Assembly (NCBI GenBank): GCA_963922205.1
Contig: CAWUHX010000148.1
Span: 1 to 64,000, forward strand
DNA: 64,000 bases
From: Romanomermis culicivorax
Taxonomy: Eukaryota; Nematoda; Enoplea; Mermithida; Mermithidae
Direction of reading: 5' to 3'
The position numbers and the translations under genes are program-made. Of the stretch, positions 38,101 to 58,603 are shown piece after piece (position 1 is the first letter of the stretch; every line of letters begins with the position of its first letter). The notes beneath the pieces are model-generated. The model made no database searches. It worked only from the letters and a program-made list of their open reading frames with translations, and was not told the DNA's origin.

Positions 38101-41100
38101 ACCTCACCCGTGTGAACGGCGAAGTAAAGATTTCTTAATTTTCAAGTCAGAGAAGTTAGATTTTCCATGAATTTCTTAGTTCATAACGATCAAATATGGT
38201 TTTAATGACCGTTGCTGAGCTATATAAGACATATTTTACACAAAAGCTCACTATCGCAGTCGAAATCGCGACCCGGCCACATATAATCGTCGTTGATCGT
38301 TTGGCCAGTCTTATCAACACAGAAGCAGTACTTAGAACCGGGCATTAAGACACATTGTAGGCTGCTATAGTCACCATTTTCTTCGCAAGCACGGGGATCA
38401 CCCTCAATTGCCATGTGACCATTGAATCGACTGTCGGAATAGAAGTTTTCCGCGAAGCATGGTGTTAATGTTATATTTGGAAGTACGCCATTAAATTTGC
38501 CTGAAGCAAACAAAATACTTCCCCTGAATTTTCTTTGCCAGTACTGCATCAAAGTAAAGTTTGGCCTCCACGATGAGGTGTTTTCACGAAAACTTCATGG
38601 TTACCTATCCCCACAATATGATATCAGTCCTTAGAAGCAATTATGATTTTCCATTACAATCATGGATCGAAATTTTATGCGGAAGCTTGATGCTGCACTA
38701 AGATATGATATGTGATACAGCCAACAATTTGCGCCTTTATCTCCATAGTTTTTTATGTCTCTATGTTTCGAGAGAAGAACTTGAGAGATATTTAACCTGA
38801 TTTACTATTTTTCAAAGTCTGTTTCAGAACGTTCAGCCGCCAGATTTTTATAACGAGTGTCGATTCAGCCACTGGTTTAATTTTTCATTTCGCTGCCATT
38901 ATTTTTTGCAATTTTTATTTAATTTTTTCTTTTTTGGACCGACATATTTTCTCAAAATTTGATGTATTCAATGAGGAATTTCAAATAACCAAGCACAATA
39001 ATGCACGAGCTATCAGAAGGATAATTCTGAAAATATCCTTGCGCAATGTTTTGGTGAGAAAGTCGAAACGCTTGCACATATTTTCTAAAAGAAAAACATT
39101 TAATAAAAACCGAGCATTGAGTTAATCAAATGTATTTTTGGTAAACCATTAGACTTTCCAAAAACCGTTGGGAATCGGACAATGCAATTGGGTCTTGACA
39201 AAATTTATGAAAATAAAAATTTGGCTTTATCAAACTCTTGAGGATGTGATGTTTTTCGATGTCAAAAGTAATCACGGAAAGAGTCGTTAAGTATGACCCC
39301 GGGCATTAGATAGTGTGTCTTCAAATTTTTTTCTTGGTAAAGACAAGTTGCAGTGATGGGTATCTGGCCCCCAAATTTCATGCCCCCCACCCTAAAGCCA
39401 AAACGATAAGAGCTAGAACGTTCGTGTTTCTCATGATTCCGGGCATAGGGGCAAACTATGGGGCGCCTTTTGTCACTTCGCCTCTATCTGCAAGTGGTGC
39501 TCGGTGGGGCCCCAAAAACATGGAAAAACGCACTTTCTAAGGGTTCCCAGTCCCAAAATGCCCCACAATGGGTGTGGCGTATCCAAGCTCCATACTTCGG
39601 CCTAAGCATCTTGGGGGTGCAATCTAAAATGAGATTTTTTATTTTTTTAGAATATGGCCTCAAGTCAATTATATGGTGGTCCAAAGTTCCGGGAAACGTG
39701 AAAATCGGGCATTTTGTTATGTAATACTTACGGCTTCAAAAAAATAATTTTTTGCGGTATAATGCACTACGGTGTCAGAATTTTTTGTAGTTTCAATTGA
39801 ACCGTTAGCCTTATTGGGATTTTTGGGGTGTAAGGGTGTTCGACCATTGGGAATTTGATGGATGCGGTCACTTTACACGAGACATTATCCCGGGTGTAAC
39901 AAACGTATTTTTGTCATTATTTCGCGCAAGGGGTTTAGGACCACGGTAAATTCAATTAAGACGGTCACTTTACACAGAAAAATTAACCCCGGTGTAAACA
40001 AGCGTATTTTGGTAATTTTTTGTGGAGGGGGTTTTCGACTGCGGGGAATTCAATGGATTTGTCTCTTTACACACAAAATTATATTGAGTGTATACAAAGG
40101 TATTTCTGCGGTTTTTTGGGTTGAGGGGTTCTTGATAATGGTGAATTCAATGGAAATGGTCACTTTACACTCTGTTTACAGCGTGTTTCAAGTTATATAC
40201 GGATTACACATGTTTTACTTTTACCAAAAGTGAGAATTCGTAGCTTTAGAATTGTTTTTTATTGTTTCTTTGATGTGAAGACGACCCAAATTTAAGCAAA
40301 AAGCAAAGGCAAAAAGACTAGATTTTTAAGAACTAGGGTTAAGGTCGGAAAAAAATTCCCTTTCGTTATATTGGATTTTCATTCTTTTTCAAAAAAAATT
40401 TTCCATGTCTGTGAAGAAGAATATTCTGCAGCTGAGTGCATCAACACACCCTCCAACCAAACATGTGCATCTTCGAAATTCTGAGGGGAGTACAAGAGTG
40501 GACCTTGGTTTTTTGAGACATAAAATTAAAAAAAAATTGACTCTAAAATTTTTTTTCATAACAAACTTTCCAGTTTCAAAACCCTTGGGGTAGTTTGTAC
40601 ACTCATGTCCCCCTCACACTGTATGCTTCCAACTGTGTTGAATTTTTTTACTGAATTTGGTGTCAACAAAAGGAATCAACTGTGGGAAAGTGGCACATAA
40701 AATGCCACTCAACTTTTTCCAGAAAAAAAAGTTTTCTTTTAACTGAATCGATTGTGCAAGATATGTTTAATGCACTTATTTTATAAGAATTCACTCTGTA
40801 AGCTCTACTGAATACAAAATATAAACAAATTTGTTCTCTTCTGTTTAAACTATTCAATAAAACAGCATCATTCACAGTTTTTGGATTTAAACTGGAATTT
40901 GCAGAAAAAGCGCTTCTTGCAGGATTGCAGACGGGAAGCAATTTCACCCATCCCTGTCGCTCCCGTCCTGCTTTCAGAAATGTCGTACTGTTGCCGTGGG
41001 AGTACGAGTTTAGTGGGGGAGGAGCGGGTACAGGAGTTGGTGCACACCCCTAATATAGGCATGGCTGAATCAGGAGCATTTTTGTATGCTTTACCAGTTC

Positions 41101-42839
41101 TCCCATTTGCAGGTAGGTGCCCAATGACTGTAACCAAGGCTCAGTTGCACTAAAGAGGTCTAAGCTCGAGCTCAAGATAATCTTGAACAAAAAGGCAAGT
41201 CGGTTTGATCTCAAGTTCGCTATAGTTTGAATGTCATCAGGATTATAACGAGCTGAATGTCGAGATTATCCCCAGCTTGTCGGGTTGCACTAAATTTTCT
41301 TATCTCTAAAGCAAATAAATATAAAAATGTCTGCAATTCCCAAACGCGAAATCAAATCTCAGTATTAGTTAATCCTGAAGTGAGTATTGTTTGTGCACTG
41401 GAAGAAAACAATTTGGACATTGCGATTCGCTCAAACTGAAGATTATCAATTTAATCCCGATGTTGAGATTATCCTCATGTTGGGTTAGTGCAACCAACCT
41501 CAGGTTTCTTTATAGTTCTGAAAATGACTATAATATGCCTCTCTCACCATTTTTCAGCTAGTGTGAGAGGCAGGAGTTTTGAATTGGCCGGGAGTTAGAA
41601 TGATATTGGTTTACCATTTCCTTTTATTTGAAGTCATGGGCATATAATTTTCATATAGAAAAATGTTACTGTAGTTGATGCCAGGGGAAGGACAAAATGC
41701 ACGACGCTGCAGAATATACTTTTTCAGAGACATGAAAATTTTTTTGAGAAAGAATGAAAATCCAATATAACAAAAGTGAATTTTTTCAGACTTTAACCCA
41801 AGTTCTCAAAAATCTAGTCCACTTCTTTTTGTAAGTTGGCAATCCAATCAAGTATATCCTCCTTTTTTCTGCCCTACCGGGTCTTTTCTAATAAACTAGT
41901 CCAGATATTTACGCCGCTTGTGAGTCAGAGTAGCTATTTTTGACAAGAACAGCTAACTTTATAGCATAGAATCAATAATTATCTTTGTAGGAAGACGCAA
42001 AAGCTTTCATCAATATCTGAATACCTCACATTCAATTTTAAACCAAAATTTGACTTGGCTAAATTTTGGATGAGCGACTGAAATGTCTGTTTTTCATCTT
42101 TCAACATGTAACTAACAGGAATTGACTGATTTTAGCTTGTGTCAAAATATTCAACATGAGTTTAACGTGAGTTTACTGAGTGGCTGAAACAACATGTTAG
42201 GGGGACTGTGTTAACACAGTACGGTGGCTGACTTATTCATCGTCTTATATCTTAGGTTGTACGAGTAGGTCTTGGCGTATCCCATACTAGATCTATAATA
42301 TTTGAACATTTTCGAATTTTGAATTTTTTTCTGCCTCTGCTCATGCCTTAGGTCCTAAAGCGCGTTAACCGTATTCTAGATTGTATCATGAGATCAATAT
42401 TTAATTTAATGGTCTTTCAGTCAATATAAATTTCATACAGATCTTATCTGACACCTGATTAAGGTTAATGAACGCATAAAGTGTATTTATCATGGTCCAC
42501 TTAAATTGCTCTAAGCCATATCAACTGCCCCTTTGAGAGACTCATTCTGGAAAAATTACAAAAAAGGTACCAGGTGATCATTTTATTTCGCAAAAATCAC
42601 ATCATACTCTCTCTACCTTCACAGTCAAGAGCCGGCAGCTTGGCGTATTTTCTACGAATGGCCATCTCACGGGTTATGTTGACCCTTGTTCCGGGCTTTT
42701 CTTGGCCCGTTTCCGTATCTCTGCACCAGCAATATGAATAGTCACATCGCTCGCTTGGGTAAGTTCCATCATGGTCAAAGTTTCCGCGAAAAACTTTTGC
42801 ACTTATAGAAGAGAAAAAAAGTAGAATCAGCAACAACAT
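35128..42839 (-). CDS. Secreted protein with three thyroglobulin type-1 repeats (3' end uncertain)
   Basis: The minus-strand exons are 42839-42617, 38500-38252 and 37294-37085, with a tentative fourth at 35182-35128. Introns after exons 1-3 are all phase 1. Exon 1 encodes the signal peptide [14 protein letters not shown] and a short thyroglobulin repeat ([20 protein letters not shown]) that lacks its first two cysteines. Exon 2 is a full repeat ([31 protein letters not shown]). Exon 3 is another ([32 protein letters not shown]). In both later repeats the family's CWCV is CFCV. Thyroglobulin type-1 modules often inhibit cysteine proteases or occur in matrix proteins; which applies here is unknown. 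The 55-nt fourth exon ([17 protein letters not shown]) has tttttcag and gtaagt borders and fits the phase, but no final exon was found. Intron 1 hosts a TIR element and a minisatellite; the last intron hosts foldback element 3. Confidence 0.75.
35668..36820. mobile_element. Foldback-like element 3 with inverted minisatellite ends
   Basis: The left end holds four to five 17-bp units ggccgactgtagcggct (35678-35766) and the right end the same units inverted (36721-36812). Inside these, the inverted repeat continues for about 160 bp of ordinary sequence: aaaatgcaagagcaacgcaaaaatat at 35884 matches the complement of 36590-36612, and cgaaatttgaataaaatgt matches near 36650. Arms are therefore about 250 bp around a ~650-bp AT-rich centre with no transposase. 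It sits between exons 3 and 4 of the thyroglobulin-repeat gene. Confidence 0.78.
39838..40170 (+). repeat. Minisatellite, about 3.5 copies of a 97-bp unit
   Basis: The motif ggtcactttacac recurs at 39866, 39963, 40060 (diverged) and 40158, spaced 97-98 bases. Each is preceded by a gaattcaatgga-type segment and followed by a gtgta(a/t)ac.aa.gtattt segment. It lies in intron 1 of the thyroglobulin-repeat gene. Confidence 0.75.
40923..41112 (+). pseudogene. Exon-like open frame inside the 1.5-kb inverted-repeat element
   Basis: A 190-base segment bounded by tcttgcag and a gtaggt donor. It is much richer in GC than its flanks and fully open for 63 codons ([10 protein letters not shown].., [20 protein letters not shown]). 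I do not recognise it. The opposite strand is also open through the segment ([10 protein letters not shown]..), so strand and coding status are unsure. No neighbouring exon with matching phase was found. Confidence 0.35.
41141..41505. repeat. Internal inverted repeat with ttgcacta ends
   Basis: gttgcactaaag..ctcaagataatctt at the left is answered by gattatcctcatgttgggttagtgcaac at the right. A third ttgcacta occurs at 41284. It may be a MITE nested in the 40316-41820 element. Confidence 0.4.
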
Positions 42840-44385
42840 TTCTCGTAATTAAAAATGAAAATGAAAAATCTTCAATCCTGTCGAAGCATAAGTGCAGGAT
42901 GAATCTATTCATGCACGACCGTAGTGCATAGTCCTGAATTTATTCCATCAGTAAAACTTTGTTCCAAGTGAACTTTCTTTTGGAATGTGAATTTATTCAT
43001 GTACAACACTAATGCGTGTTCATGAATTTATTCTAAAAGTCAAAACTTTCTGTAAGTCTATTTCCAGAGAAATTGTTGCTTTTTTCACGGTAAAGTTGAA
43101 ATGAACAATCAGGAAAAGTGGAAAAACTTACCCTACTTCTACAGAAGTTGAAAAGCATTGTATCTTTTTGACTAAACGTGACCAATAACTGTTGTAAATT
43201 CAAGTCGAAAAGCGCTTTTTCGGCACCATTATTGGAAATAATGTCACTGTCACTAATTATGTAAATTAGTGTAATGTTATTGGAACTCAATGAAGTCGTC
43301 CCAGTTACCAATAAAAGTAATGTTAATTGAGTGGAAATTATAGATAGTAATCTCAGCCAAAATATAGTTGATACAGAGCTAGCAAACATTAATATTAATG
43401 ACAATTTTTTAAGTATGATAAAATTGGCAAAAAATAATTTTATTCCTCAATGTGAAACATTTGATAAAAACAAAAATTCAAAATTTGTAATGAAGTATAT
43501 AAATTTCCTATATGTACTAAGATTAGACCAACAGGTTGTGTCAGAATCTATTTGTGTTGGGATAATAATTAAAACTATAAGGTCAAAAAATGCAGGCTAG
43601 AAATAGCCACCCAAGTAGAGACCCTGATCATATCATTTCTTGTTCCACAAAGTGGACATTGCAGCCCTTATAAACCCAATCCTGAAAGATGTTGCTACCA
43701 GCACGTTGTAACCCAAAAATTCAACAAAGACGTTTTTGATCACTCAATGCCCATAACTTATGTAAGGGCCGCATCTGGTGTGATCACAACATATGTACGG
43801 GATAACTGTTATATATGTATTTCTTCGTTGCGAACTCCCTAAATATTATGGTTCAATGATTTATGGCTGGGGATAATATATTAAATCAGTCGTTAAATTT
43901 CCAATTCGAATTATTTAAAATAAAATGTCCAGAAATAAGTAAACAAGTAAGTCAAAAAAGAAAACAACCAAAGTGATGAAAACGAAAATGTGTGATTAAC
44001 ATTAGAGGAATTAAAATGAAATTGTACAAAACGATAGAATTCGTTCTGCATCAAAGGTCGTTAAAAACAATTTGTAAAACACTAAAATTCTAACAAACAT
44101 TAACCCCATTTTAATTCTTCACAGATGCCATAATGAAAATAAAATCTGCATAAAAGCAGCAAAAAGAAGTTTTATTGAAAAGCATAAAACATGAAAACTT
44201 TCGTTAATACATTGCAAGATTCTATTAATTGGTGATTTTTATTAAGGTTAAATTTATTAGAATTCGAGGAGCTGTGTTTTTTTTCTCTTCGGCATAAGCG
44301 TTATATTTCAATATTTTCTACATAAATGCAGTCAGTACTATAATAATTTATGTAGTAAATAGAATGTATTATAGTAAATAGAATG
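42840..44385. other. Intergenic, AT-rich
   Basis: No gene supported. A short direct duplication (agtaaatagaatgt) at 44354-44388 marks the left flank of the retrotransposon. Confidence 0.45.
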
Positions 44386-44983
44386 TGTTATATCTTGGTT
44401 TGCGGTCGGGGATGATGTGGCGTGAGCAGGATTGGGATTCCAAGGTTGCGGCCTTAATGTACGTGCGTCCCACACCCACGTTTACCCGATTACTTAATTT
44501 CTAATACTTAAACCCCGACGATAATAGTTTTCCCCAACAATCAAAGAAAACCCTAGTTTCTTTAATTGTCTCCCTTCTACTCTCACTAACTAAAAATAAA
44601 GGGATTCTCCTACCTATTTATTATTATACAATAACGTACGAAAACTTACGTGACCAAAACGTTACGGGCGAGACGAAAATAAAAAATGACAATAATAAAT
44701 CTACTCCCACGCGCGGGCGAACAAAGACGAGAAACGCGTGGTGGGAGGCGGCTAATACGTGCTAGTGGTGGCCGGCGGGGCACACAACTAGTAAGGAAAA
44801 TAAAAAATACACGTAAAGTATATGCAACGAATAATGAATAGAGAGAGACCAGCGCACGCGTACCGACGTGCGCTACAGTAAGATGGCCACTGGTGGTCCG
44901 CGTTGCTCTCTCCACTTGCCACCTGCGGGCCTGTGACGCGTTTTGACAAATAATGAAAAATCGGCGGAAAACACACTACAACA
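44386..44983 (-). repeat. 3' LTR
   Basis: 598 bp, bounded by tgttat and acaaca as read on the plus strand. On the element's sense strand a possible poly(A) signal AATAAA lies at 44622-44617. Confidence 0.95.
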
Positions 44984-44996
44984 CCCCTCCCCCCTT
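44984..44996 (-). other. Polypurine tract
   Basis: The sense strand reads aaggggggagggg directly before the 3' LTR, the expected second-strand primer. A 6-bp-stem hairpin (gatcgc/gcgatc) lies next to it at 45003-45019. Confidence 0.85.
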
Positions 44997-45401
44997 GCAG
45001 TAGATCGCCCTAAGCGATCGTCAAGAAATACCGAAAAGAACGTGCAAGGGGAAGGGCTCCGCCACTACAGGCCGTTGCCGGGGTTGCCGAAGATTCTTCG
45101 GCGTCACACAGCGGGGCCGGCGGAGTTGTTGGGGTAGTTTGAGCCGATTTTTAGGGCTGCGACCATAAGCCCGGCGGCGAAGTGTACGGACAAAAACGGG
45201 GCAAGTGGGGGCGTGTAGCGGGCCACTGGCGGTCAACTTACTGTGTGTTTGCAGCGTCGGCTGCACGTGCGCTGGGATCACTAGTACAAAATAATAAAGC
45301 ACGAACGAGATTAGAAAATAAACAACCGGTGTGAAAAATGAGGTTAAAAGAAAACAACAAAACGAAAAAGAAGTACAAAGTTACTGTACAAAAGCTCGTG
45401 A
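44997..45401 (-). other. 3' untranslated stretch of the retrotransposon
   Basis: About 400 bp between the third ORF's stop and the polypurine tract. No ORF is supported. Confidence 0.5.
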
Positions 45402-48400
45402 TCAGTGGCGGCGGCGATAACGAGTGTCGGACGCTGAACGGTGATTTCGTTGCGGATCGCGGCGGTCTCGTTCTCGTTCTCGTTCTCTTTCTCGTTGGCG
45501 TTCGATGTGGTAGCCGTGGGGATCGTATGGATCTTCGTGGCCGTCAAAGCGGTAGTTACGAGAATAGCGGGATCGACCGTAGTCAGAGGTATCCCGGCGG
45601 CGAGACGACGAGGTTGACATTTGAGGCGGGAGCGGCGATAGCGGGTTAACGCCTGGCGCTGGTAACTGAGTCGCGATTAACGACGGTTTGTCGGACGGCG
45701 TCCCTGTTGGCGGCAACGGTCGCGGTGGTAAAAGATTCCACCGGGCAGAGAAATCGTGCCGACGCAGCAGGGGCGCGGGGCGATCCGTCTCGCTATGGTA
45801 TTGTAAATAAATTTTTCGGACGTCGGCGAGTTCGGGCGGCTGTGGAAACGGTGCGTAGTCTGGGTAAGCCATCCAGCTGTCGATGAGTCCGACAGCGGTG
45901 TTGTAGGCTTGGAGCAGGCACGAAGGATTGTCCAGGCCGCGAGCTTCGTAGAGGAAAAGCGTCAAATGGGCGGTGTGAACGGCGTCAACGACGCCGAGCT
46001 CCTCGGCCCAAAGACTGGCGACCCATTTCAATATTACCGTGGCAACGGCGTGCGAGATCGGTGGTTGCTGTTCTACGTACGAGGGGCGGTAGTGGTCGCG
46101 AAAATACTGATACAGCGCCAACGAGGCGTTCGTGGCGCGTATGTGCACCGGCATAATGATGTGAATGCGGAGGCGCCCGAAAAAATTGATCAGCACCATC
46201 TCGTGCATCGTGCGCGGTGAGAAGAATTCAACGGCCGGGTCAATATGTGGCGGATAGCCCGGCGTGACAATCGTAACAGTATGCGGCTTATCGGTAGTAC
46301 GGAATCGCGTATAGTTCGGCAAGTGCGTAGCCTCGCTAGGCAACCGGGGTTTGATTGCTGGCGCGGAACTTGGTGGCAACGGGACTCCAAGAACCGGTTT
46401 GGTGGTGATGATCATATGCGGCTGTTGGACCGCAGTAACCGGAGCCGACGTCGGGGCCGTAGGCGGCAGCGACGTGGTGTGGGTTACCGTGGTCGATATG
46501 GCGGTTGTCGGAGCCGTGGGCGGCTGCGACGTTACCGTAGGCGTAGTCGAGGGTTTTGCGGGCTCCACGTCCATAGGAGGCGGCGGGAGCAGAGCTTTAA
46601 ATTCATCTTTCGGCGGATTCTTTAGAGCTTCCAGGCGGCGCTGGATTTCGGCGTCTCGGTGTAATGGGCTAATATAGTCGGTTAATTTCGTGGGTGAGCG
46701 GCGGAAACCGTGGCGATAGTGTTCTTCGTAGAAACCCGTTGTGTGCACCTTACGGGTTTGTTCGCTCTGAGTACGATGCGGCGGCGCGTCATCGCGGCGT
46801 TCGTGTTGGCGGCTTTCCCTGCCGGTTGCTGGGGTTTGTTTCGTTTCTTTTCGGTGGCGGTCATCACGAGAATGGGACTCGTGGTGTGAACGGTGACTGT
46901 CTGTCTTGTGAGCAGGCGGCGGTAACGTTGCCGACGCTGTTGTTTTGGAAGAATCGCGTTTGGGTTTCGGCGTTGACGTAGCGTGCGAAGAGCGTGCGGC
47001 TTCTTCGCGGATTCTTTGCTTATCGCGTTGTTCGCGGCGTCGAGTGGTGCGCTCGCTGGGCGTTCGGCCGCGCTCGGCACGCGAAGTGCTGGGTGGCGGC
47101 GTACGCCGTGTACTCGGTTCGTCCGATGTTTTGGTCTTGTGAGATTTGCGGTACGCTGATTCGTCCTGGAGCTGTTGTTTTCGTTTTATCGAATGTTCAT
47201 ACCGACCGGGTCTTCGGATGGGATTACCATAGCGATCTAAAGCCGGCACGGACGTGCTGGATGCCTGTGGGGTTTGGACATCCACAGGCGCCGTCGGCGG
47301 CGGTAGAATCGCTGGTTGCGGCGGTTGCGGGATCGCTTGCGGTTGGGATATGACCGGCGGCGGTAACGGGGCCGGTGGTTGCGTGACGGGTTGGGCCATC
47401 GCAGGAGCCATTTGAGCTACTTGCGGGGCCGGAGCGATCAACGTCGGTTGCGGCAACAAAATTTGTTGTATTTGTTCCTTCAACGACTCGGGGAAATCTT
47501 TCCACTGGTGTTCAGGAAATAGCATACCGGGCGGCGGTGGCGGGAAATGATGCGCGGTCAGTGCTGCGGCCAAAGCGTCCCATTGCGGAGCTGAAATAAA
47601 CTGTTGCGAAAAACGTACAGGAGCACTATACCTGGCTGCGGCAACAGTAGCAATAAGCGGAGGTCCCGGCAAAGCGGCCGGCGTCGCCAAATATATTCGT
47701 GGATCCACGGCGGGTGCCGTGGTGATTGTCGTAGCGGCTGGTTCCATAGAGGCGACGTCCATAGACGTGGATTGGTCCACGGTACTTTCTTCGGGTATGT
47801 CAGTCAACATTTGTTCTGACGTCATTGTCTCGGAGTCAATCGCGGCGGGTTGGACGGGTGTGGACTCGTCCATCGGGGCCGGAGCGATGTTGGAAATTTC
47901 ATCGAGCGTCAGTTTCAGGAAATCGTTGATTTGCGTGGCAGTTGCGGTAATATCGGAAGGCGCCGGTACCATAGGAAGGGTCGACACGTCCGTTGACGGC
48001 GGCAGCTTCGCTATGTTGAGATCGAAAATTGGCGTTTCAAGTAGTTCATCGTCGGCGGGTTCAACTTCAACGTCGGTGGGGCGGTCGAGAAGTTCCTCGG
48101 CGGTGAGCGTGTGCACCGAAGCCGTAGTCGGCATGGGGTACGCATACACCGGCGCGGGGAACGAAAGACGGTTTTGGTGGTCGATGAGCGCGATGAACGT
48201 TGAATAAAAATGGAAACGGCTATGTGGATTGGCCGTATAATCGTTTTCATCGATTTCAACTTCTTCGACCGACGTTTCCATGTGGAAGTTTTCGTCGAAC
48301 ACGATCGGGCGTAACGCAAAGCGATTGCAAATGTACGTGCTCGGGTCGGCCGAAAAACTGGGCTCGCATTCCGGAATGCGGTTCATCCAAGTCGTGAGAA

Positions 48401-50631
48401 GCGAATTGGGGTTGCCGTCGCTGCGGTACCACATGCATTCGTAGAACACGGCACGTGTATCTGGCGTCATTGATTGCGCGTGGCGGAGGAGGACGTCATT
48501 GACCCAGGCGTATTCCGCGGCGGAACATGGTGAAGCTAGGAGCGCGGCTAACGGCATAAAAGTCGTTAGCTTCCGGAACCATTCTCCATCAATCTGTAAA
48601 AAATTAAGGATGGTTGAGGGGTGATAACGATAATGGGTACCGTTATAAGTGCGCTCGCGTAGGGGTTGGTCGGCGGCTACGCGTTCGGTCCAAAGATCTT
48701 CGACTTCGTGGGGAAGCGGCGGCAAGTTGGGATCGTTGTAGGGCATACGATCGCGGACGGCCAACTTGTATATCGGTGAAAGCGGGAAGTTGAGCAACTC
48801 GATGATGCGGTGGATGAGATTGCTTTTCATGGCCGACGTGACGGCTGCTTGAAGACGTTTGGGATCGTCGAACACCGATTGTGGTTTGAGAGCCGGGTCT
48901 TCATCGTCGGAGACGTCTGGTGACTTGTTCCATTCGTCTTTCTGTTTCTTTTTCTTCTTTTTTGGCACTTTCGGAACGGGGAGAAGCTTCGGGTGAGTTG
49001 TCCGCGTCAAGGATTTGATATCTTTGAAGCCGTTGGGAACCGTTCCTAAACAGAAAGACCGACCGTGGTCGGACGATGTGCAATCATACATAAAAAATTT
49101 ATAAGCCGAAAGAACTTCGTCTCGCATGATCGCGGGCAAGGCCACTTGCGACGTAGTCGGGTAGATCCGGTTGGCGTAGTCGGGAGGCAAGACATCCGAC
49201 AGCGCGACGTTGTAAAAAGTTGCGATGACGTATTCAGCGAGATGGTCGATTTCGGCGGCGTCCAACGAGTCGTGGGGAAACAACGCGGGCGCGTTGTAGA
49301 CCTCGGGGATGAAGCCGTAACGACCAAATGCCAAGAACAATAGCAGCGGATAATAGGCGTCGAGGGCCGCGTAGGCCAAAACGTCGGATTGTAGAAACGA
49401 CGTTGTTGGATTGTTGAAAAAGCGTAGAGCGTGAGGAAAGCGTAAGGTGAGCTTTGAGACGTCTAGCGCCCACATTGCGGAGACTGTGGCTTTGAGCGTG
49501 CGTTTTTCCGGAAAGAAACCGATTCGGCGGGCCAACTCGTACAGTGGCGGAGATATGTCGATATTGCGAATGACGCGGTACGCGTCGAAGTGGATTGCTT
49601 TCACGACAGGATCTTTGTTTTTCTTTTGCCGGTCAGTGCGAAATTGAGTGCCCAGAAGCGCGTAGATTCCCGCCCAGTCGTCGGCTCCATCGAAAGAGAC
49701 TACGATGGTGTGGTCGCCGTCGACTAGGGCGAAAAGCGCGGTCCAGTCTTCTGGGGTGGCGGTGAACGTTTCGAAGACGAACATTGTGCCATTCGGAAAC
49801 GCGAGTTGAACGTAGCGGGGGTAACTAGATGCGTTGGGGTCGGCTGGCATTTGAACTGTGCATTGAAACTGTTTGAAGTCGGCGGCCGAGATGGATTCGG
49901 TGTCAAAGCCGACCAGCGTGTAGCCACGGAAGTTTGGTGTGGGTTGGGCGGCCAAGGCCTGCCCCAAACTTCCGGGTGAAAGGAAAATCGGCGGCGGCAA
50001 GACGTTCGGGGGTCGCGCGTACATGGAAATGTACCACGACTCCAAATCGGCGACGCGAGTTAGGCGTTTGACGTTGTTTTCTAAACAAGAGCGAATGCGA
50101 TACTCATCAATGACACATGGGACGCCACGTCGAATGAACGACATGGGGTTTGAAGGATGATGTAAACGTGAACCAAGAGGGAAGCGCTGTGGTGTCGTCA
50201 ATTCGTTAGAAGGACACATGCTTTGAGGCGGCGTTGGCTTGGGCGGCGATGTCACCTTGATGGGCGCACGTGGACAACTGGATCGGGCTACGATAGCGAG
50301 ATAACGAGAGTTGTGGTATGCGGAAATCAAGGCAGCGGCCGGTTGTGGACTGAGAAGGCCACAACTTGACGATGACGGGATCGCGGCGGCTGACCATGGG
50401 ACTCTGACCCAAGACTACAGAGGGGGAGAAACTCATGGGGTCCCAAGCAAAAGCATGCAAGTAAGCAGCAAAAGCATAAAATGAGAAAATACCGTCGCAG
50501 GCGAAACTTAAATCGTTCTGGTGGGGCTGCCGTTCGGCCCAGCGGACGTAACGTTCGTTTACGTTTATCGATTCGCGATACGGCGGAGGGTCGTCGGCCG
50601 TGGAGGATGATGCGGTCGACGGCGTCGCCAT
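45402..50631 (-). CDS. Third retrotransposon ORF: DEDDy 3'-5' exonuclease domain plus long proline-rich protein
   Basis: An uninterrupted frame runs from 50414 down to a TGA at 45404-45402 (1670 codons). Its first in-frame ATG is at 50219. A short frame starting at ATG 50631 can join it by a 148-nt intron (50562-50415; donor gtaaac, acceptor after ctctgtag, phase 0), giving about 1693 aa and an early DDPPPYRES segment with a PPxY motif. Exonuclease motifs: ExoI VGFDTES (Asp codon at 49904, Glu two codons on), Exo[12 protein letters not shown] (Asp pair near 49682), Exo[14 protein letters not shown] (Tyr at 49373, Asp at 49361). Between them sits a typical LARRIGF..ALDVSKL segment. This is the WRN/RNase D (DEDDy) pattern with every catalytic residue present. 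Downstream come a lysine-rich patch (PKKKKKKQK), an unrecognised globular region, a very Pro/Thr-rich stretch, another conserved-looking region ([20 protein letters not shown]) and an Arg-Glu-rich end. No signal peptide or envelope features are seen. Confidence 0.85.
50415..50562 (-). other. Candidate intron at the start of the third ORF
   Basis: The acceptor tttctccccctctgtag is strong, and its TAG is exactly the stop that closes the long frame upstream. Donor aac|gtaaac gives a length of 148 (one more than a multiple of three), which is what is needed to connect the ATG at 50631 to the long frame. RNA would be needed to confirm it. Confidence 0.45.
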
Positions 50632-51136
50632 GTTGAAAAATAAAATTTTTGAGAGCGGCTGGAAAATGCGACTATTGCTGATGGAAGCGAAAGATGGAAA
50701 TGAAATAGTAAAAAGAATGAGCCGCTGAAAGGTGAAGAAAGTGTAAAGTAGGAAAATGCAAACACTATCATTACGAAAAGCAACACAAACACCACTATGT
50801 TAATGGAGAGTAAAATCAACCTTTCCCAATTAGTCTTATGAGAGTGATAGCGGCCAGGGTCGGGCGGAAGTAAACCGAATGGCCTCGCGCCAACAGAACC
50901 TAACATTATAGAAGAAACCCCCTCCTATTGCGAAAGTGCGGAAACCGAGACCGGGTGTAAAGTGACATTGTAAAGTCGGTTGAGGGCAAAAACAGCGGAT
51001 TGAGTGGAAACGTTGGAATTGCCGTGCATCCTTGCTCGTTATCGAGGTCGCCATGATCTAAATTAAACAAACACAAAGATTATGTACAACGCGGCGTGAT
51101 GAGCGCCGTATCACAAAAGGAAAATTTCAAAGCGAA
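50632..51136 (-). other. Spacer between pol and the third ORF
   Basis: About 500 bp, more AT-rich than the rest of the element. Short frames here include one with a hydrophobic run (50906-50565), but nothing shows that it is translated. It could hold the splice or promoter signals for the third ORF. Confidence 0.4.
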
Positions 51137-54100
51137 CTATTGCCGGCGGGAAGTGTGGGGCGTGCGGGGTCCACCTTCTTCGTTGTCAAAAATATTCTTT
51201 GCCGGTCGTGGGATGAACGGTTTTAGACGCGTTATGGAGACGGTCTGCGGGCGGCCGGGCGCGTCGAGTGCGTCAATGGTAACAACGTTTTCGGCTGCGC
51301 GGGAAGCGTCCGTGATGAGGAAAGGCCCGATAAAGTCGGGTTGAATCTTGTTGGCTTTTCGCGTGTTGGTCAAAAGAACTAAGTCGTTGACGGCGAAGTC
51401 GCGTCTTCGAGCTTTGCGGTCAAAATATTCTTTGCTGGCGGCTGCTGCGGCATCGAGATTAGCTTTGATCTTTTCGTGCATCTTGAGTTGGGCTTGCGTT
51501 AGAATATGTTGATAAGCGTCGTAATTCAACGGCAAGGTGAGACGGCGGGCGCAATCGTAGTCGAAAGTGATGCGCGGTTCATATCCTCGTAATAAACTGA
51601 ACGGCGAATGTCGTGTGGCTGTATGCGGCGTGGCATTGTAAGCGAATACCGCGTAAGGCAGGTATTGCTCCCAGTTGTCTGGGTCGTCAGCGGTATACTT
51701 TTTGAGTTGGGCGATCAGTGTTTGGTTGAAACGTTCGACCATTCCGTTGCATTGGGGGTGGTACGTCGTTGTTTTGACTTTTCGAATTTTGAGAAGTTCA
51801 CAAATATCTTGCATGAGTTTTGACGTAAAGCATCCGCCTTGATCGGAAAGGAGTACAAGTGGGCTACCGTGCGTGAGGACGACGTTGTTGATGAAACATT
51901 CCACTATTGTTGAGGCTTTTTGATCCGGTATCGGGTGCGCGGATACGAATTTCGTAAAATAATCCTGAAAAACAATAACGTAGGGACGCTTCTCACCTAC
52001 TGGCGAAATATTGACGATGTTGGTTGCCACGATTTCGAATGGGTGTTTGGGTTGAATTGGCAACAAGGGCGGAGGCGGTGACGTGCGCGGCGTTGTTAGT
52101 TGACAAATTTTACAGGTTTTGATCCAATCCCGAACGTCCTCTTCCATGCGGGGCCACCAAAAGTGAGCTTTAATGGCGGCTAGCGTCCGATTCGTCCCTT
52201 GATGATTCAAAATTTTGGCGCCGTGAAATTGGTGAAGAGTTTGGTCGACCATGGAGGCGGGTACGACTAATTGCTTGACGTCTTTAATTTGCCGGTATAA
52301 AAGTTGATCTTCGAGGAAGAAAATCGGCGGGTGTTTGGCGGCGTTATCTGCTTTGAGGGTGGCGACAATTTTCGTTATGGCTGGATCTGCGGCTTGAGCT
52401 TTCCGAACTTCTGCGTGAGCGGCGATTGTAATGGCTTCGGCCGGAGGCGGTTCGTGGTCGGCATCCTTAGGCATTGAATTAGAGAGTGTGGGTGAACTGA
52501 TGGTCTTTCTCGTCATCGCACGGGTGATGGCGTTGATTTCGGCGTCGACCTCCGTGGATAGTGAAGCCACTGCTGGGCGTGTTTCCGGTACCGTCAGGTC
52601 GGCTTCCGTAGTTGCACCAGCAGGGTGAAAATTTTCACGGAAGATCTTGGTGGTCAAATTTTCAGCGTTCTGGATCGGGCATTTGTCGCGGTCATCTTTC
52701 CTAGATAGAAAATCAGCACAAGCGTTATCCTTACCTTTAACATATTCCACTTTGTAATCGTAATCTTGCAGACTGATCGCGAAGCGTTGTAGTCGTGAGT
52801 TTCGGTGTTTTTCGTCTTTGAGCCATTCGAGCGGCTTGTGATCGGTGCGGACGATAACTTTCTGGCCGTACACATAGTGGCGGTACATCCGGAAGCCGTA
52901 TACAATGGCGAGGCATTCACGCTCAGTTGTACTGTAGCGGGTTTCGGCATCGGTGAGTACGCGGCTATTGTAGGCGATGACCCATTGGTCGTTTCCGTTT
53001 TCTTGATACAAAATCGCTCCAATGGCGGTTGTACTGGCGTCGGTTTGAATAACGAATTGAGCTTTGCCATCGTAGACGGGATAGCGGAGAAATGGCGAAG
53101 ACGTAAGGGCTGTCTTGATGCCTTTGAATGCGGCGTGGTGTTCATCCGTGGCGAAATATTGGGCGTCTTTGCGTAAGAGTCCGTACAGTGGACTGGACAA
53201 GGTTGCCAAATTCGGAATGAATCGCTTGCACCATTGAACTAGACCTAAAAAACTTTGCATACCTTTTTTAGTCTTTGGAAATTCGTATTCGGCGATCGCT
53301 TTGACTTTTTCGGGATCGGCGGCGATTCCGCGGGCGCTAAGAAGATGTCCCAGGAATTTGACTTGCGGCGGCAGAAACTCGCATTTGTCGGGTCGAAGCG
53401 TAAGATTGGCGGCGCGGAGGGCGTCAAAAACGATTTGAAGGTGTTCCAAATGCTCTTCAAATGAATTCGAGAAAATGATGATATCGTCGATGTAAACGAG
53501 GCAGATTTTCCAGATAAACGGGCGAAGGATTCGTTCCATTAAGCGTTGAAATTCGGCGGGCGCGTTCTTCAAGCCGAACGGCAAAACTTTGAATCGAAAC
53601 AAACCTTCTTGGCAAATGAAGGTTGTTTTATCGCGGGAGTCGACGTCGAGGGGTACTTGCCAATACCCAGCCTTGAGGTCGAGCGTGGTGAAGAATTTTG
53701 CGTGTCCCATTGCGTCCAGGTAGTCGTCGATGCGCGGGATTGGGAATTTGTCGCTCGGCGTAACATCGTTGATTCCGCGGTAGTCAACAACGGGTCTCCA
53801 CGAGCCGTCTTTTTTCTTTACCAAAAATAGCGGTGCGGCCCAGGGTGAGCGGGATGGTTCGATAAAATCATTGTCAAGCATTTCTTGAATATGGCGGCGT
53901 ACAATCGGTCTTTGTTCCATCGCGGCGCGATAGTAATGGCGGGATACGGGCTTCGCGGTGCTGGTGTCGATGCTGACGGTTAATTCGCTAGTGATAGTTG
54001 GTTTATCGCCGGGGAGACTGAAAACATCGCGGTGCTGTCGGAGCATCCTGAGGGCTCTCTCTTTTAGCGCGGTAGAAACATACGTCTTTTCCGTCATTTT

Positions 54101-54643
54101 GTTCAGGGCGTATTCCAGCTTTTGTTGTGCGGTGTTGCCTGGGAATGATTTATCCAATGCGGCCGGCTCGTGGTCGGTTAAGTCGCAGTCGGCGGCGGCG
54201 GTTGCTATCTGACAATCGGCGTGGGTTTCGGAATACTCCAGCGTGTGCTTTGCCATCGCAATGAGTTGATTTGGTCGGAGTTTGATACTGTTCGGCGTAT
54301 TGTTGATGAAAAGGAGCGGACAATGGCCATTGGTGATGTTGACCACTGCGGTTTCGACTGGGAGCTCTGCGGCAACGTTATCCGTGGCGAGTGGTTGTAC
54401 AATCACATCGGGCACTGTCGCCGATGTTGTGGGAAAAACGCTACTTTTGACCCATTGTTGGCAGTGCGGCGAAATCGAAATGGAAGCTTGGGCGACGAGA
54501 AAAATTGGTTCGGCGAGCTCCGTAACCTCCAACCGCCTAGGGGGCGGTTGGTGTGGACCAGGTTGAGCCTGCCGTATCGGTTGTTCGACTTCGATTTCTT
54601 CGGGTTGGCTAAAAATATCAGATTTATCATCATAACAACTTAC
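51137..54643 (-). CDS. pol: Retrotransposon Pol: reverse transcriptase, RNase H, integrase
   Basis: The frame is open from just after the gag UGA (54646-54644) to a TAG at 51139-51137, 1168 residues with no start of its own required; the first strong block begins near 54532. Numbering residues from 54532: RT covers about 190-400, with [13 protein letters not shown] and the YIDD box at 347-350. RNase H has TDAS (Asp 498), [22 protein letters not shown] and ADFLSRK. The integrase HHCC finger has FHG..NHQG..CKICQ (first Cys 807). The integrase core has LSDQGG (Asp 897) and MVERFNQ (Glu 933), spaced 35 apart as expected. The first catalytic position reads VATNIV (Asn 838, codon 52021-52019) where the family has Asp. 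The C-terminus carries the GPF module ([16 protein letters not shown]). Order and motifs are Ty3/gypsy. Confidence 0.93.
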
Positions 54644-57600
54644 TCATTCGTCTTCTGGTATCTCTTCTAAAACGTTGTCGTTAGTGGCGTTGAGAAATAA
54701 TTCCGTTTGCGGGCGGATCGAGGCGATTACTTTGAGCGGCAGTTTAACGTCTTGAATTTCGATATAATTGTCTTTGAAATTTAAAATGGCGTGGATATCG
54801 GGGTGCGCGAGGAAATCGGTTCTGATGATGAATTGATCGTTTCCGTCGTCGTCAAGAATTACGCATTTGATCATGTGCTCTCCGAAGGCGGATTCCATTG
54901 TGACAACTACCGGGCCGTGAGCGTTGACTACGGCGCCGTCAGCTACTTTAATTTTTCCACAAATCGGGAGTTGGAGCGATTGCTTGTCGAAAGCGCGTTT
55001 GACCAAACCTGATGAGAGGACGGAACATTGGGCACCTGTATCGATGAGCGCGTGTGCTTTGACGGCTCCAATTTTGATTGGGATTTGAAAGGCTCTCGTA
55101 GAAGCGTATTTGCGGACAAACGATTTGGAAGATGGCGTTAGATTATCAATTTGACAAACGGACGAACGAATATGACAGGGATCTTGAAAAGCGCGGCCTG
55201 TTGCGTTCCAACGGACGATGCCGGGGCTGACAATGGGCGCGGCGGAAGCGATTTCTTTAGATGGAACAACCATATTGGCCGCGGACGTTGAATGATTGTT
55301 GACGCGTGTTTCGAGCGCCGGTACGGGCGCGGTGTTTGGTGCCGGAAGGGCGGGTAGGGTAATTTGCATTTCTGAAGATTGAGAACTAGCATGCGATGAA
55401 TCCGTCGGCGTTGTGACGTATGGAGCAGGTACCGCGTTGTAATGAATATGTTGTTCCCACGGCGCCGGAAATTGGTGGTTCGGGTAGACGGCGTATGTAT
55501 TCTGAACGAAATCATTTGGGCGTTGTATAGGGTTACTTTCATAGAAATGGTTTCGCGCGCCGCGGGCGTAGTTCGCACCACGTTGGGGCGGTCCTCCGCG
55601 GCGGGGTCGCCAATCGCGTTGTCCACGGACGTCGTTTGAATTATTTCGGAAGTCAACTTGCCGTGGTTGGGCGGCGTAATTTGAGCGATTTGGTTCAAGT
55701 CGGGCTGATTGTTGAGCGTTTTGCCGTTTGAGCCAGACGCAATCTTCTGTGTTGTGTGTGCGGGATTTGTGAGCGTCGCACCACAGACCTGTAGGTTGCG
55801 TCGTGCGTGCGCGGTCTCTGCTGGCGGATCTGTCGAAGCGGTTTGCGTACGGCTCTCTGTTTTGAGATTGATGGCGCGGACTTTGTTGCCGATTGATGGG
55901 GGCCGTTTCTTCAGGGCGTTGTCGAGATTTTCTTTCTTCATAGTCGCGGTCGTATCGTTGAATCAATTGTTCCAGAAGCATCTCCGTGCGCGGTAGTTGC
56001 GGTGGCGGTGGTTCAATTGCTTGTGGTTGGAAAGAGACGAATTTATTGGGCTGCATCGCCGGGTTTTGCGTCCTGCGGTCCATCGATGGAGAGCGCTTGC
56101 GGTAGCGATTTTGAGGACGGTCCATGCTGCGGCGGCGTTCAAAACGGCGGTCAAACGGTTGCGGCGACTTCGGAGGTGGTGCATCTTGATCGGCTTGATT
56201 TACCAGAATGGGTCGTTCCGCGGTTCCAATTTCGGCTTTAGTTGCGTTGAGGACACTACGGGCTTTGGCTACGGCGTCGGCCAATTGTTGAACATTTGTG
56301 AAACCCTTTGCTTGTTCGCCAATTGTGAGTTGATAGAAAACAGGCATTTTTGTCAAAAAGGTATCAATTACTTGTTTATGCCGGAAAGTTTGATCTTCAT
56401 GCTGATACAATAGTTGTACATAAGTCATCACCTTACTCAAGAATGCGGCGGGTTCCTCTCCAGCTTCTGGCGTGATTGACGCGAGTTCGCGTTTAAGAGT
56501 CATTGGATTGCAATCGGGCGCCAACTGGAACATAAGCAAATGTTTGGCGTCTTCGTACCGCGTCATATCTTGGATCATGTCGCTCGGCGTATCGCGGGTG
56601 AGTCGGCGGAGGGCACTCATCTTTACGTGATTGGAGGCGTCGTAGCCGAACTCATTTTCCAGTCGTATGAAGAAGCGTAACAGGCGTTTATTTGTTGCGG
56701 CGCCGTCAATTATCAACGGATGCATATTGTCGACGATTGTTTTGATGCGGCTATCTTCTTCACGATGAGACGTGCGCGGCATGTCGTACCGAGGATGCCG
56801 GTGTTCATAATAATCCTCGGGTGGATAATCTGAAAAGCCAAATTGGTTGGCCGCGGGCGGTGGGCGTCTTTGAAGCGCGGAACGGTGTAAATCTTCATCG
56901 GCGCGCGTATTGCGGGCGAATTCGTTATTATATAAGGTATCCGTCGACGGTGCTTTGGGTTTGACTTGGTTTGGTAGCCTGCCAAAGACTGGAGCCGGTT
57001 CAGTTTCACGGAAAGTTTCGTTAGGGATATAAACATCTCTTGTTTCCTCGCCGTGAAACCGTGAGGACACCGGCGGCGGTCTTGGTGTAGGCGGATTACG
57101 CGCGTGCGTCGCGGCGGCGGTTGTGGAAATCAACTGTTGCATTTGCTCGGCGAGCGCGGCGAAACGCGCGTTAGTGGCTTTTGTTTGTTCTTGAATTTCG
57201 CGTTGAACGCGTAATTGTTGGGCTTGGAATTGATCGGAGACGGCGCCGATAATTTGATCAATGGTTTGTACCGTGGGGACATTGTTGGTTATACGCGCGG
57301 CGGCGGTGTTTAGTTGTTCCAGCGCGTCGCGTGCTTCAATTCGAAAATTTTGGACTTTGTTAGCGTTTGCGATAGCGAGACTGCTGCGGTGATCGTTTAC
57401 TGAAGCACGGGTGGCGGCTGGGGCTTGCGGCGGTTCAATATTGACAAAGGATTCGGAAGAGTCGGTTCTGGCGACAATTTGGTCATCATTACTTCGAGCC
57501 GGCGCGGGCGGCGGCGGCATTTGCGATGCGGGCGGCGCGTTGAGACGATTTTCGGCGGCGGCATGAATATTTTGGTTTCCAAACCGCGGAGTTTGGGAAA

Positions 57601-57865
57601 TATTGGTCGCCGCGGTTGCGGGAATGAGCGGTGCTTGCGGCTGTGCCGTCCCGTCCAGCGCGGGAGTGCTGAAATTAGACAAGGGCGGATTATGGGGCGG
57701 GAGACTTACCGTGGGTACCGCTGTCGATTGCGTAATATTTGCCGGTCGCGGCAACATCATCTGATCAAAACTTAAAGCGCGGCGTGCGGCTGTGGCGGCG
57801 TTGGGAGAACTGGAACGCGACGGAAATCGAGTGAAGTCCGGCGGTGTGTGGCTTACCGTTGGCAT
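54644..57865 (-). CDS. gag: Retrotransposon Gag with C-terminal aspartic protease
   Basis: 1073 residues from the ATG at 57865 (aaaaaagATGcc) to a UGA at 54646-54644; the frame opens slightly earlier but lacks an ATG. The N-terminal third is Pro/Ala/Gln-rich. Residues about 375-545 form a helical capsid-like region ([12 protein letters not shown].., [12 protein letters not shown]). A zinc knuckle at about 695-709 reads [15 protein letters not shown], a C-x2-H-x4-H-x4-C variant in which the second Cys is His. The protease follows with [11 protein letters not shown] (Asp 942). Its second signature reads FIIRTDFL, with Arg at 1015 where retropepsins have Gly. Gag-protease and Pol share one frame, so the UGA must be read through for Pol to be made unless it is a mutation. 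Confidence 0.92.
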
Positions 57866-57982
57866 CTTTTTTCTCAAGGTATAATAACCTCGTTTGTACC
57901 CTTTGGCGCAGCTACGGCGGGGTCGAATTTTGAATTCTTTAATTTCTTCGGATGCAACGCAACAGCGGGGAGCGGCAACGTA

Positions 57983-58000
57983 CAATCCAAACGGTCACCA
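57983..58000 (-). other. Primer-binding site
   Basis: On the sense strand tggtgaccgtttggattg starts one base after the 5' LTR. The leading tgg pairs with a tRNA CCA end. I could not match the rest to a tRNA with confidence; Trp-type primers share the first eight bases. Confidence 0.65.
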
Positions 58001-58001
58001 G

Positions 58002-58599
58002 TGTTATATCTTGGTTTGCGGTCGGGGATGATGTGGCGTGAGCAGGATTGGGATTCCAAGGTTGCGGCCTTAATGTACGTGCGTCCCACACCCAGGTTTA
58101 CCCGATTACTTAATTTCTAATACTTAAACCCCGACGATAATAGTTTTCCCCAACAATCAAAGAAAACCCTAGTTTCTTTAATTGTCTCCCTTCTACTCTC
58201 ACTAACTAAAAATAAAGGGATTCTCCTACCTATTTATTATTATACAATAACGTACGAAAACTTACGTGACCAAAACGTTACGGGCGAGACGAAAATAAAA
58301 AATGACAATAATAAATCTACTCCCACGCGCGGGCGAACAAAGACGAGAAACGCGTGGTGGGAGGCGGCTAATACGTGCTAGTGGTGGCCGGCGGGGCACA
58401 CAACTAGTAAGGAAAATAAAAAATACACGTAAAGTATATGCAACGAATAATGAATAGAGAGAGACCAGCGCACGCGTACCGACGTGCGCTACAGTAAGAT
58501 GGCCACTGGTGGTCCGCGTTGCTCTCTCCACTTGCCACCTGCGGGCCTGTGACGCGTTTTGACAAATAATGAAAAATCGGCGGAAAACACACTACAACA
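58002..58599 (-). repeat. 5' LTR
   Basis: 598 bp, same ends as the 3' LTR and a single mismatch to it at 58095. It ends at the target duplication aatg (58600-58603). Confidence 0.95.
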
Positions 58600-58603
58600 A
58601 ATG

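What the first reader, a model, noticed from the sequence alone, without database searches (positions are those of the whole stretch)
45402..50414. LTR retrotransposon carrying a DEDDy 3'-5' exonuclease in the env position
Seen: after gag-protease and pol, the element has a third, roughly 5-kb intact ORF whose N-terminal part shows [15 protein letters not shown] and [11 protein letters not shown] in the right order and spacing for the WRN/RNase D exonuclease fold, with every acidic residue and the Tyr of the DEDDy class present. Established: retroviruses and errantiviruses put an envelope gene here; Ty3/gypsy elements do not normally carry an exonuclease. Inference: an exonuclease captured from a host gene may process the element's own RNA or cDNA, trim integration ends, or counter small-RNA silencing, since nematode MUT-7 has a related exonuclease domain. 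I know of no described family with this layout, but I could not search.
Basis: partly seen in the sequence, partly recalled or inferred. Interest (0 to 1): 0.92.

Follow-up and report, generated by a model that had tools for sequence, protein, structure and literature searches.

The report
Nematode retrotransposon with exonuclease third gene
A large family of jumping genes in a mosquito-parasitic worm carries a third, apparently spliced gene with a 3'-5' exonuclease-type domain where retroviruses keep their envelope gene; natural selection keeps the domain, a similar arrangement is described in bdelloid rotifers, and its job is unknown.

Summary
The minus strand carries a Ty3/gypsy-type LTR element (44386-58599; LTR match of 599 nt with 1 mismatch) with protease, RT, RNase H, integrase and then a third gene with all DEDDy residues in order. 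The window ORF alone misses Pfam PF01612. But a diverged family in the same genome (C; 24% identity, BLASTP E 3e-29) and a distant integrase-bearing family (B) that passes the PF01612 cut-off link it to DEDDy exonucleases; a joint profile hits MUT-7/WRN structures first, mainly around Exo III. The gene is probably spliced: exon 1 50493-50631, intron 50081-50492, exon 2 45402-50080 (1605 aa), with the same phase and place in family C. Selection is strong (pN/pS 0.085, 14 copies; C 0.116; B 0.133). The host assembly matches Romanomermis culicivorax v2. Corrections: the layout was described in bdelloid rotifers in 2017; the first ~111 residues of the stop-to-stop ORF are intron; a stop breaks this copy's gag-pol. 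Predicted folds were unusable; activity, splicing and role are unshown. Leading guess: an RNA 3'-end exonuclease serving the element's RNA or blunting siRNA silencing. A new variant of a known kind, in a second animal phylum.

The parts
58002..58599 (-). 5' LTR (TGTT...AACA)
   Evidence: 599-nt match of 58001-58599 to 44385-44983 with 1 mismatch; ends and flanks read
58600..58603 (.). target-site duplication CATT, 5' side of the element
   Evidence: flank reading
54647..57994 (-). gag-protease part of the gag-pol frame (stop-to-stop ORF, stop codon left out)
   Evidence: ORF; Pfam aspartyl protease PF13650 2.2e-5 at residues 972-1061
54644..54646 (-). in-frame stop codon that splits gag-pol in this copy; no stop in the frame there in 6 of 6 other copies fetched
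51137..54643 (-). pol part: RT, RNase H, integrase (H2C2 + rve)
   Evidence: Pfam RVT_1 4.1e-39, RT_RNaseH 7.6e-36, Integrase_H2C2 3.2e-19, rve 2.7e-10
50493..50631 (-). third gene, predicted exon 1 (ATG at 50631; 46 codons + 1 base)
   Evidence: pN/pS 0.16 in the ATG frame only, 8 copies; counterpart exon in family C pN/pS 0.11, 12 copies
50081..50492 (-). predicted intron of the third gene, 412 nt, GT...AG, phase 1
   Evidence: GT and AG kept in 8 of 8 copies; same phase and place in family C, GT/AG 12 of 12. Not checked by RNA data
45402..50080 (-). third gene, predicted exon 2 (spliced protein 1605 aa)
   Evidence: open frame; frame across the predicted junction; pN/pS 0.00-0.27 in segments of spliced aa 48-907, 7 copies; aa 908-1605 not tested
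49209..49958 (-). DEDDy exonuclease-type domain (about spliced aa 88-337)
   Evidence: alignment A1, BLASTP to family C 3e-29, hhalign A+C against B, joint profile against PDB
49896..49904 (-). Exo I D-T-E (catalytic D and E)
   Evidence: invariant in the 4-row alignment A1; 13 of 14 copies keep GFDTE, one has K for E
49677..49679 (-). Exo II aspartate
   Evidence: column D157 invariant in A1; kept in 13 of 14 copies, A in one
49359..49373 (-). Exo III Y-x3-D (YAALD)
   Evidence: invariant Y and D in A1; both kept in 14 of 14 copies
44984..44996 (-). polypurine tract next to the 3' LTR
   Evidence: read directly
44386..44983 (-). 3' LTR
44382..44385 (.). target-site duplication CATT, 3' side

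Best explanation
A Ty3/gypsy-type LTR retrotransposon family of the mermithid nematode Romanomermis culicivorax carries, downstream of integrase, a third gene made (by prediction) by splicing a short leader exon to a 4.7-kb exon. Its 1605-aa protein has an N-terminal DEDDy 3'-5' exonuclease-type domain, then a further region under selection, then proline-rich and SR-like stretches and a basic RS/RE-rich tail. Shown by sequence: the layout, the residues, the constraint, and an exonuclease-type ORF after integrase in two further families. Inferred: the domain is an active metal-dependent 3'-5' exonuclease on RNA, brought to RNA by the basic regions. The repeated use of such ORFs by elements here, and by LTR and Penelope-like elements in rotifers, argues against a role tied to LTR cDNA ends and for one at the RNA level: maturing or protecting the element's RNA 3' ends, or removing siRNAs or their templates. 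I put the domain assignment at 0.9, catalytic activity at 0.75, an RNA-level role at 0.6, and within that an anti-silencing role at about 0.3.
For: Element anatomy. Family C: related integrase (49% identity over 394 aa), exonuclease region BLASTP 3e-29, PF01612 0.0031, below cut-off. Family B: ORF 240 nt after an integrase ORF, PF01612 1.4e-10, above cut-off. All DEDDy positions invariant across A, B and C. hhalign of the A+C profile against B: score 40.8 over 145 columns from Exo II to Exo III; best of 200 column shuffles 29.5. Joint A+B+C profile against PDB: 14 rows at E up to 10, the first ten named exonucleases of this kind (MUT-7 homologue 2.4e-5 first, then WRN, EXD2, NrnC, Rrp6 and a putative 3'-5' exonuclease), four of the ten below 0.05. 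Purifying selection: A 0.085 (14 copies), 0.100 in six copies from the last eight rows of the list, C 0.116 (12), B 0.133 (23). Splicing. Clade I nematodes lack PRG-1/PIWI and the EGO-1-type RdRP but have an RRF-3-type RdRP, and no 5'-triphosphate small RNAs were found in R. culicivorax (PMC4323106, passages).
Against: The window ORF alone has no PF01612 or PDB match. The PDB matches of the joint profile cover mainly the stretch around Exo III (best row: 36 residues), four MAP kinase rows follow at 0.56-0.84, and the profile leans on family B; A+C alone gives only the MUT-7 homologue at 0.75. Two AlphaFold2 runs gave mean pLDDT 36 and 51 and none of the 50 Foldseek rows shown for the better one is an exonuclease. 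A alone against B by hhalign is weak (E 0.0089; C alone 0.023) and A+C against E. coli RNase D (21.0) lies inside the shuffle range (maximum 22.7). 2 of 14 A copies have lost one catalytic acid. In the UniRef relatives only the Exo III residues are better kept than average; Exo I is about average and Exo II below (I take most of these proteins for decayed copies). Splicing, expression and activity were not observed. LTRs of families B and C were not looked for. Nothing here separates the RNA-level roles.
Confidence: 0.7

Rival explanations
1. The exonuclease-like domain has lost catalysis and serves as an RNA-binding module of an accessory protein that carries the element's RNA, as Cer1's CERV does for nuclear export of genomic RNA.
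For: The gene is predicted to be spliced and lies in the env position as CERV's does (PMC10309623, abstract, passages and section 9); SR-like and basic stretches; PMC5408684 notes catalytically inactive DEDD derivatives, Maelstrom and EXD1, that keep RNA binding; an unspliced genomic RNA with an intron must be exported (inference).
Against: All DEDDy residues survive between families whose domains are 17-27% identical to the window's under strong constraint, which binding alone does not require; CERV's domains are H, M and a GTPase-like G, and cerv exons 1-3 lie in the gag frame, unlike exon 1 here.
Confidence: 0.2
2. The exonuclease works on the element's cDNA or integration ends.
For: DEDDy enzymes such as WRN act on single-stranded DNA (PMC5408684 passage); integrase is present.
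Against: DEDDy ORFs are also found in rotifer Penelope-like elements (PMC5408684), which do not use LTR ends (recalled); integrases trim their own ends (recalled); the gene is not part of pol.
Confidence: 0.12
3. The third gene is an envelope gene whose exonuclease likeness is chance.
For: Position after pol; the window ORF alone has no exonuclease match.
Against: Only one 19-residue stretch above KD 1.6, the exonuclease helix at aa 280 (1.72); links through families C and B.
Confidence: 0.03
4. The element merely inserted beside or into a host exonuclease gene.
Against: The ORF lies between the LTRs and recurs at 96-100% identity in all 89 places scored, with a diverged family in 126 more places scored.
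Confidence: 0.01

Closest known systems
Juno and Vesta LTR retrotransposons of bdelloid rotifers with DEDDy ORF3 (PMC5408684; abstract and passages seen)
   Same: LTR retrotransposons with a DEDDy-type exonuclease ORF3, gained at least twice within one host lineage, function unknown.
   Different: Other phylum; here the DEDD acids are canonical (the paper reports DEED), ORF3 is a 1605-aa multi-region protein behind a predicted intron, and copies are many (89 scored) where the paper calls full-length copies scarce. Sequence kinship was not tested: I did not obtain the rotifer sequences.
Cer1 of C. elegans with CERV (PMC10309623; abstract, passages, section 9)
   Same: Nematode Ty3/gypsy element; spliced gene in the env position that is not an envelope.
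   Different: CERV is 517 aa from five exons, the first three in the gag frame, and has H, M and GTPase-like G domains; the word exonuclease does not occur in the text.
Cellular DEDDy exonucleases MUT-7/EXD3, WRN, EXD2, Rrp6, RNase D
   Same: Exo I, II and III residues; MUT-7, WRN, EXD2 and Rrp6 chains are among the first ten PDB rows of the joint profile.
   Different: Similarity is too low for the window ORF to be found alone; here the domain belongs to a mobile element.
Terminon/Athena Penelope-like elements (PMC6431247, passages)
   Same: Retroelements with DEDDy accessory ORFs.
   Different: Endonuclease-deficient, telomere-attached, up to 40 kb with many ORFs; no LTRs or integrase (recalled).

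Membership tests
DEDDy 3'-5' exonuclease (PF01612 type) | Exo I D-x-E, Exo II D, Exo III Y-x3-D in order | tested here: met
DEDDy 3'-5' exonuclease (PF01612 type) | profile match above the curated cut-off | tested here: not met
   window ORF no match; family C 17.8 bits, below 23.6; family B 41.7 bits, above
DEDDy 3'-5' exonuclease (PF01612 type) | profile kinship with known members | tested here: met
   joint A+B+C profile: first ten of 14 PDB rows are such exonucleases, best 2.4e-5, mainly over Exo III; rests partly on family B: A+C alone gives only MUT-7 at 0.75
DEDDy 3'-5' exonuclease (PF01612 type) | RNase H-like exonuclease fold | tested here: inconclusive
   pLDDT 36 and 51; no useful Foldseek match
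DEDDy 3'-5' exonuclease (PF01612 type) | 3'-5' nuclease activity | not testable with these tools
   needs purified protein
Ty3/gypsy LTR retrotransposon (window element) | LTRs, target duplication, order PR-RT-RNase H-IN | tested here: met
   an RT phylogeny was not made, and LTRs of families B and C were not looked for
Envelope-bearing retrovirus / errantivirus | ORF3 with signal peptide and membrane anchor | tested here: not met
   only one 19-residue stretch above KD 1.6, inside the exonuclease domain; judged from hydropathy alone
Rotifer DEDDy-ORF3 LTR elements (Juno/Vesta) | DEDDy ORF after pol between LTRs | tested here: met
Rotifer DEDDy-ORF3 LTR elements (Juno/Vesta) | ORF3 and pol cluster with the rotifer lineages | not tested
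   rotifer sequences not obtained
Cer1/CERV type | spliced env-position gene whose first exons lie in the gag frame | tested here: not met
   predicted exon 1 lies after pol; further upstream exons cannot be excluded without RNA data
Cer1/CERV type | H, M and GTPase-like G domains | not tested
   CERV sequence not obtained

The most novel reading that the evidence does not exclude
The third gene is a retrotransposon-borne suppressor of small-RNA silencing: a 3'-5' exonuclease that removes siRNAs, or the 3' ends of RNAs that feed RdRP amplification, in a nematode that has lost piRNAs and is expected to rely on a Dicer/RdRP pathway. Distant element lineages in this host (A/C and B) and rotifer LTR and Penelope-like elements would then have converged on the same counter-defence.
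Probability: 0.17. Interest if true: 0.88.

Novelty: new variant of a known kind. Interest (0 to 1): 0.6.

Why it matters
It carries DEDDy-bearing LTR elements from one group of rotifers to nematodes, shows that the domain is held by selection in three families of one genome, and points to a conserved intron in the gene. (The rotifer paper says that intragenomic evolution of its extra ORFs shows no significant departure from neutrality; [quoted passage not shown].) It turns a curiosity into a testable question: what do distant retroelements gain from a 3'-5' exonuclease? Small RNAs of R. culicivorax have been profiled (PMC4323106, passages), which makes a silencing role testable.

Tried and rejected
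Envelope gene, host gene beside an insertion and chance motif were rejected (see rivals). Pfam and PDB searches with the window ORF alone found no exonuclease. The first protein-database search, with whole-ORF length limits, found nothing at E up to 1; a shorter profile query found 95 proteins, 94 of them named R. culicivorax, which I take for mostly decayed or fragmentary gene models. Structure prediction failed twice (the second alignment held 75 of those 95 proteins) and Foldseek gave nothing useful. Viral contigs held no relatives by tblastn. The C-terminal parts of A and C could not be shown to be related (hhalign 15.3 against shuffle maximum 19.6) and the middle regions only marginally (22.4 against 22.3). 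An early pN/pS run gave 0.62 (A, aa 479-978) and 0.70 (C); I discarded these two because indels and a one-codon offset put codons out of register and redid them. Rows dropped before counts: 8 of 30 family B loci with stops or short matches, 7 of 30 B loci without an open 215-codon stretch with the motif, 1 of 8 A copies (early stop). L001-L008 were the best-scoring copies by protein, which lowers pN; six copies from the last eight rows of the list were added to test that (0.100); even so, the list holds only the best candidates (89 of 3711 scored). No tree against host WRN, EXD2 and MUT-7 genes and no RT tree was made, so capture from a host gene and the exact clade are open. LTRs of families B and C were not looked for.

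Papers: seven text searches of the held library; none of the titles and abstract starts listed describes a nematode LTR element with an exonuclease ORF. Papers outside that library, unlisted hits and supplements were not seen.
Full report
What is there. The window's minus strand holds an LTR retrotransposon from 44386 to 58599. Its LTRs match over 599 nt with one mismatch, begin TG and end CA, and are flanked by CATT on both sides. Pfam finds an aspartyl protease, then RT, RNase H and integrase. Base composition changes at its edges, from about 35% to about 50-58% G+C. After integrase comes a stop-to-stop ORF of 1670 aa, 45402-50414, with the three exonuclease motifs at the stated places.

Host. 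The whole genome that holds the window has 359,112,060 bases in 595 contigs. PMC10879605 (passages seen) gives 359.1 Mb and 595 scaffolds for Romanomermis culicivorax v2, and protein relatives carry that name. It is an enoplean nematode of the family Mermithidae.

Copies. A protein search of that genome scored 89 of 3711 candidates, all 89 at 96-100% identity over the exonuclease part. By my count of the table 67 of 89 rows list a frame of at least 1639 aa, stops inside the match being read through by the tool. This alone excludes a host gene beside one insertion.

Is it an exonuclease? Alone, the window ORF matches neither PF01612 nor any PDB chain. I therefore searched the genome with PF01612: 119 matches, 95 over the cut-off (my count; some only together with their neighbours in the frame). 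The 30 best-scoring loci align with one another and form a repeated family, here called B. One copy has a 608-aa ORF 240 nt after an ORF that matches the window's integrase at 28% identity, and RNase H and integrase zinc-binding domains lie upstream. A weaker match lies in another repeated family, C, after an integrase 49% identical to the window element's. Family C's ORF3 aligns with the window's over 305 aa at 24% identity, E 3e-29, and matches PF01612 at 0.0031, below the cut-off. In the four-row alignment the invariant columns include G-x-D-x-E, the Exo II aspartate and Y-A-x-x-D-A. A profile of A copies plus C aligns with B with score 40.8 (P 5e-5) over 145 columns from Exo II to Exo III, while 200 column-shuffled versions reach 29.5 at most; A alone or C alone against B is weak. 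The joint profile's first ten of 14 PDB rows are exonucleases of this kind, led by a MUT-7 homologue at 2.4e-5; four of the ten lie below 0.05, the matched stretches lie mainly around Exo III, and four MAP kinase rows follow at 0.56-0.84. The A+C profile alone finds only that MUT-7 homologue, at 0.75. I read this as good evidence for the DEDDy superfamily. Structure prediction did not help: pLDDT 36 and 51, and no exonuclease among the 50 Foldseek rows shown.

Selection. Over ORF residues 150-400, 14 copies of family A give pS 0.144 and pN 0.012 (ratio 0.085). Six copies from the last eight rows of the list give 0.100. Family C gives 0.116 (12 copies) and family B 0.133 (23 of 30 loci). The end of pol gives 0.07 in eight A copies and the exonuclease 0.08 in the same eight, so the exonuclease is held about as tightly as pol. 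Catalytic residues: the Exo I aspartate and Exo III Y and D in 14 of 14 copies, the Exo I glutamate and the Exo II aspartate in 13 of 14 each. In UniRef relatives only the Exo III residues are better kept than average, as one would expect if most are dead copies.

The gene looks spliced. Many of the 89 rows list one TAA inside the match; in the three such copies looked at (L006-L008) it is at ORF residue 88, and residues 1-89 show little coding constraint (ratio 0.56). Upstream, the frame of the ATG at 50631 is constrained (0.16; the other two frames above 1.6) up to a GT after 50493. A pyrimidine-rich AG at 50081 restores the ORF3 frame. Family C has the same arrangement: an exon ending in GACG before GTAAGC, then 638 nt with stops, then TTTTTTAG; exon 1 ratio 0.11; the same phase; and a junction at the same place of the protein (CD-E-NN and VD-D-HN). 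BLAST found no match between the two short exon-1 peptides, so their kinship rests on place, phase and my reading of a short similar stretch. One R. culicivorax UniRef model (P0011) also joins a relative of this exon to the exonuclease ORF, at a different acceptor. No RNA data were seen.

Mechanism. The protein has no hydrophobic anchor apart from the exonuclease helix. It is rich in proline and in SR- and RE-type basic stretches, and family C's ORF3 ends in RGG repeats. I infer an RNA-associated protein. Use of such ORFs by LTR and Penelope-like elements alike (PMC5408684) argues for a role at the RNA level rather than at LTR cDNA ends. No 5'-triphosphate siRNAs were found in R. culicivorax and clade I nematodes lack PIWI, but clade I has an RRF-3-type RdRP (PMC4323106, passages). 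That paper also reports that HENN-1, which protects small-RNA 3' ends, follows the same pattern of conservation as the piRNA factor; its absence in this species was not tested here. A 3'-5' exonuclease could attack unprotected siRNAs, but nothing here shows it.

What is known. Rodriguez et al. 2017 (PMC5408684; abstract and passages) reported DEDDy ORF3s in Juno and Vesta, gained at least twice, and in Athena elements, with functions left open. In the passages seen, later reviews mention only rotifers (PMC6431247, PMC5718144) or cite that work (PMC6338049). Seven searches of the held library listed no report in nematodes. Cer1's CERV shows that a spliced gene in the env position of a nematode element can serve genomic RNA export (PMC10309623).

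Verdict. The arrangement is a new variant of a described kind: second phylum, a larger and apparently spliced gene, three families with an exonuclease ORF after integrase, clear selection. Function remains to be shown.

Noticed in passing
window 50081-50492, densest at 50148-50393: The predicted intron varies less between 8 copies (pi 0.0124; 0.0065-0.009 at 50148-50393) than synonymous sites of the exonuclease next to it (about 0.12), as if it held a functional RNA or DNA element or had been homogenised.
   Followed up: partly
window 54644-54646: This copy's gag-pol frame is interrupted by an in-frame stop between protease and RT; 6 of 6 other copies fetched have no stop there. The copy is young by its LTRs but probably not autonomous.
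   Followed up: yes
L039 and L016 (family B): The copy read has a zinc knuckle, RNase H and integrase zinc-binding domain but no RT domain by Pfam in the ORF before its DEDDy ORF: a deletion or a non-autonomous family.
   Followed up: no
P0002 (UniRef, R. culicivorax): A gene model with a PF00929-type exonuclease start fused to the C-terminal half of a family B DEDDy domain; real fusion or artefact unknown.
   Followed up: no
window 40350-40401 and 41735-41786: 52-nt inverted repeats, 92% complementary, 1333 nt apart, perhaps the ends of a small DNA transposon.
   Followed up: no
   Followed up: no
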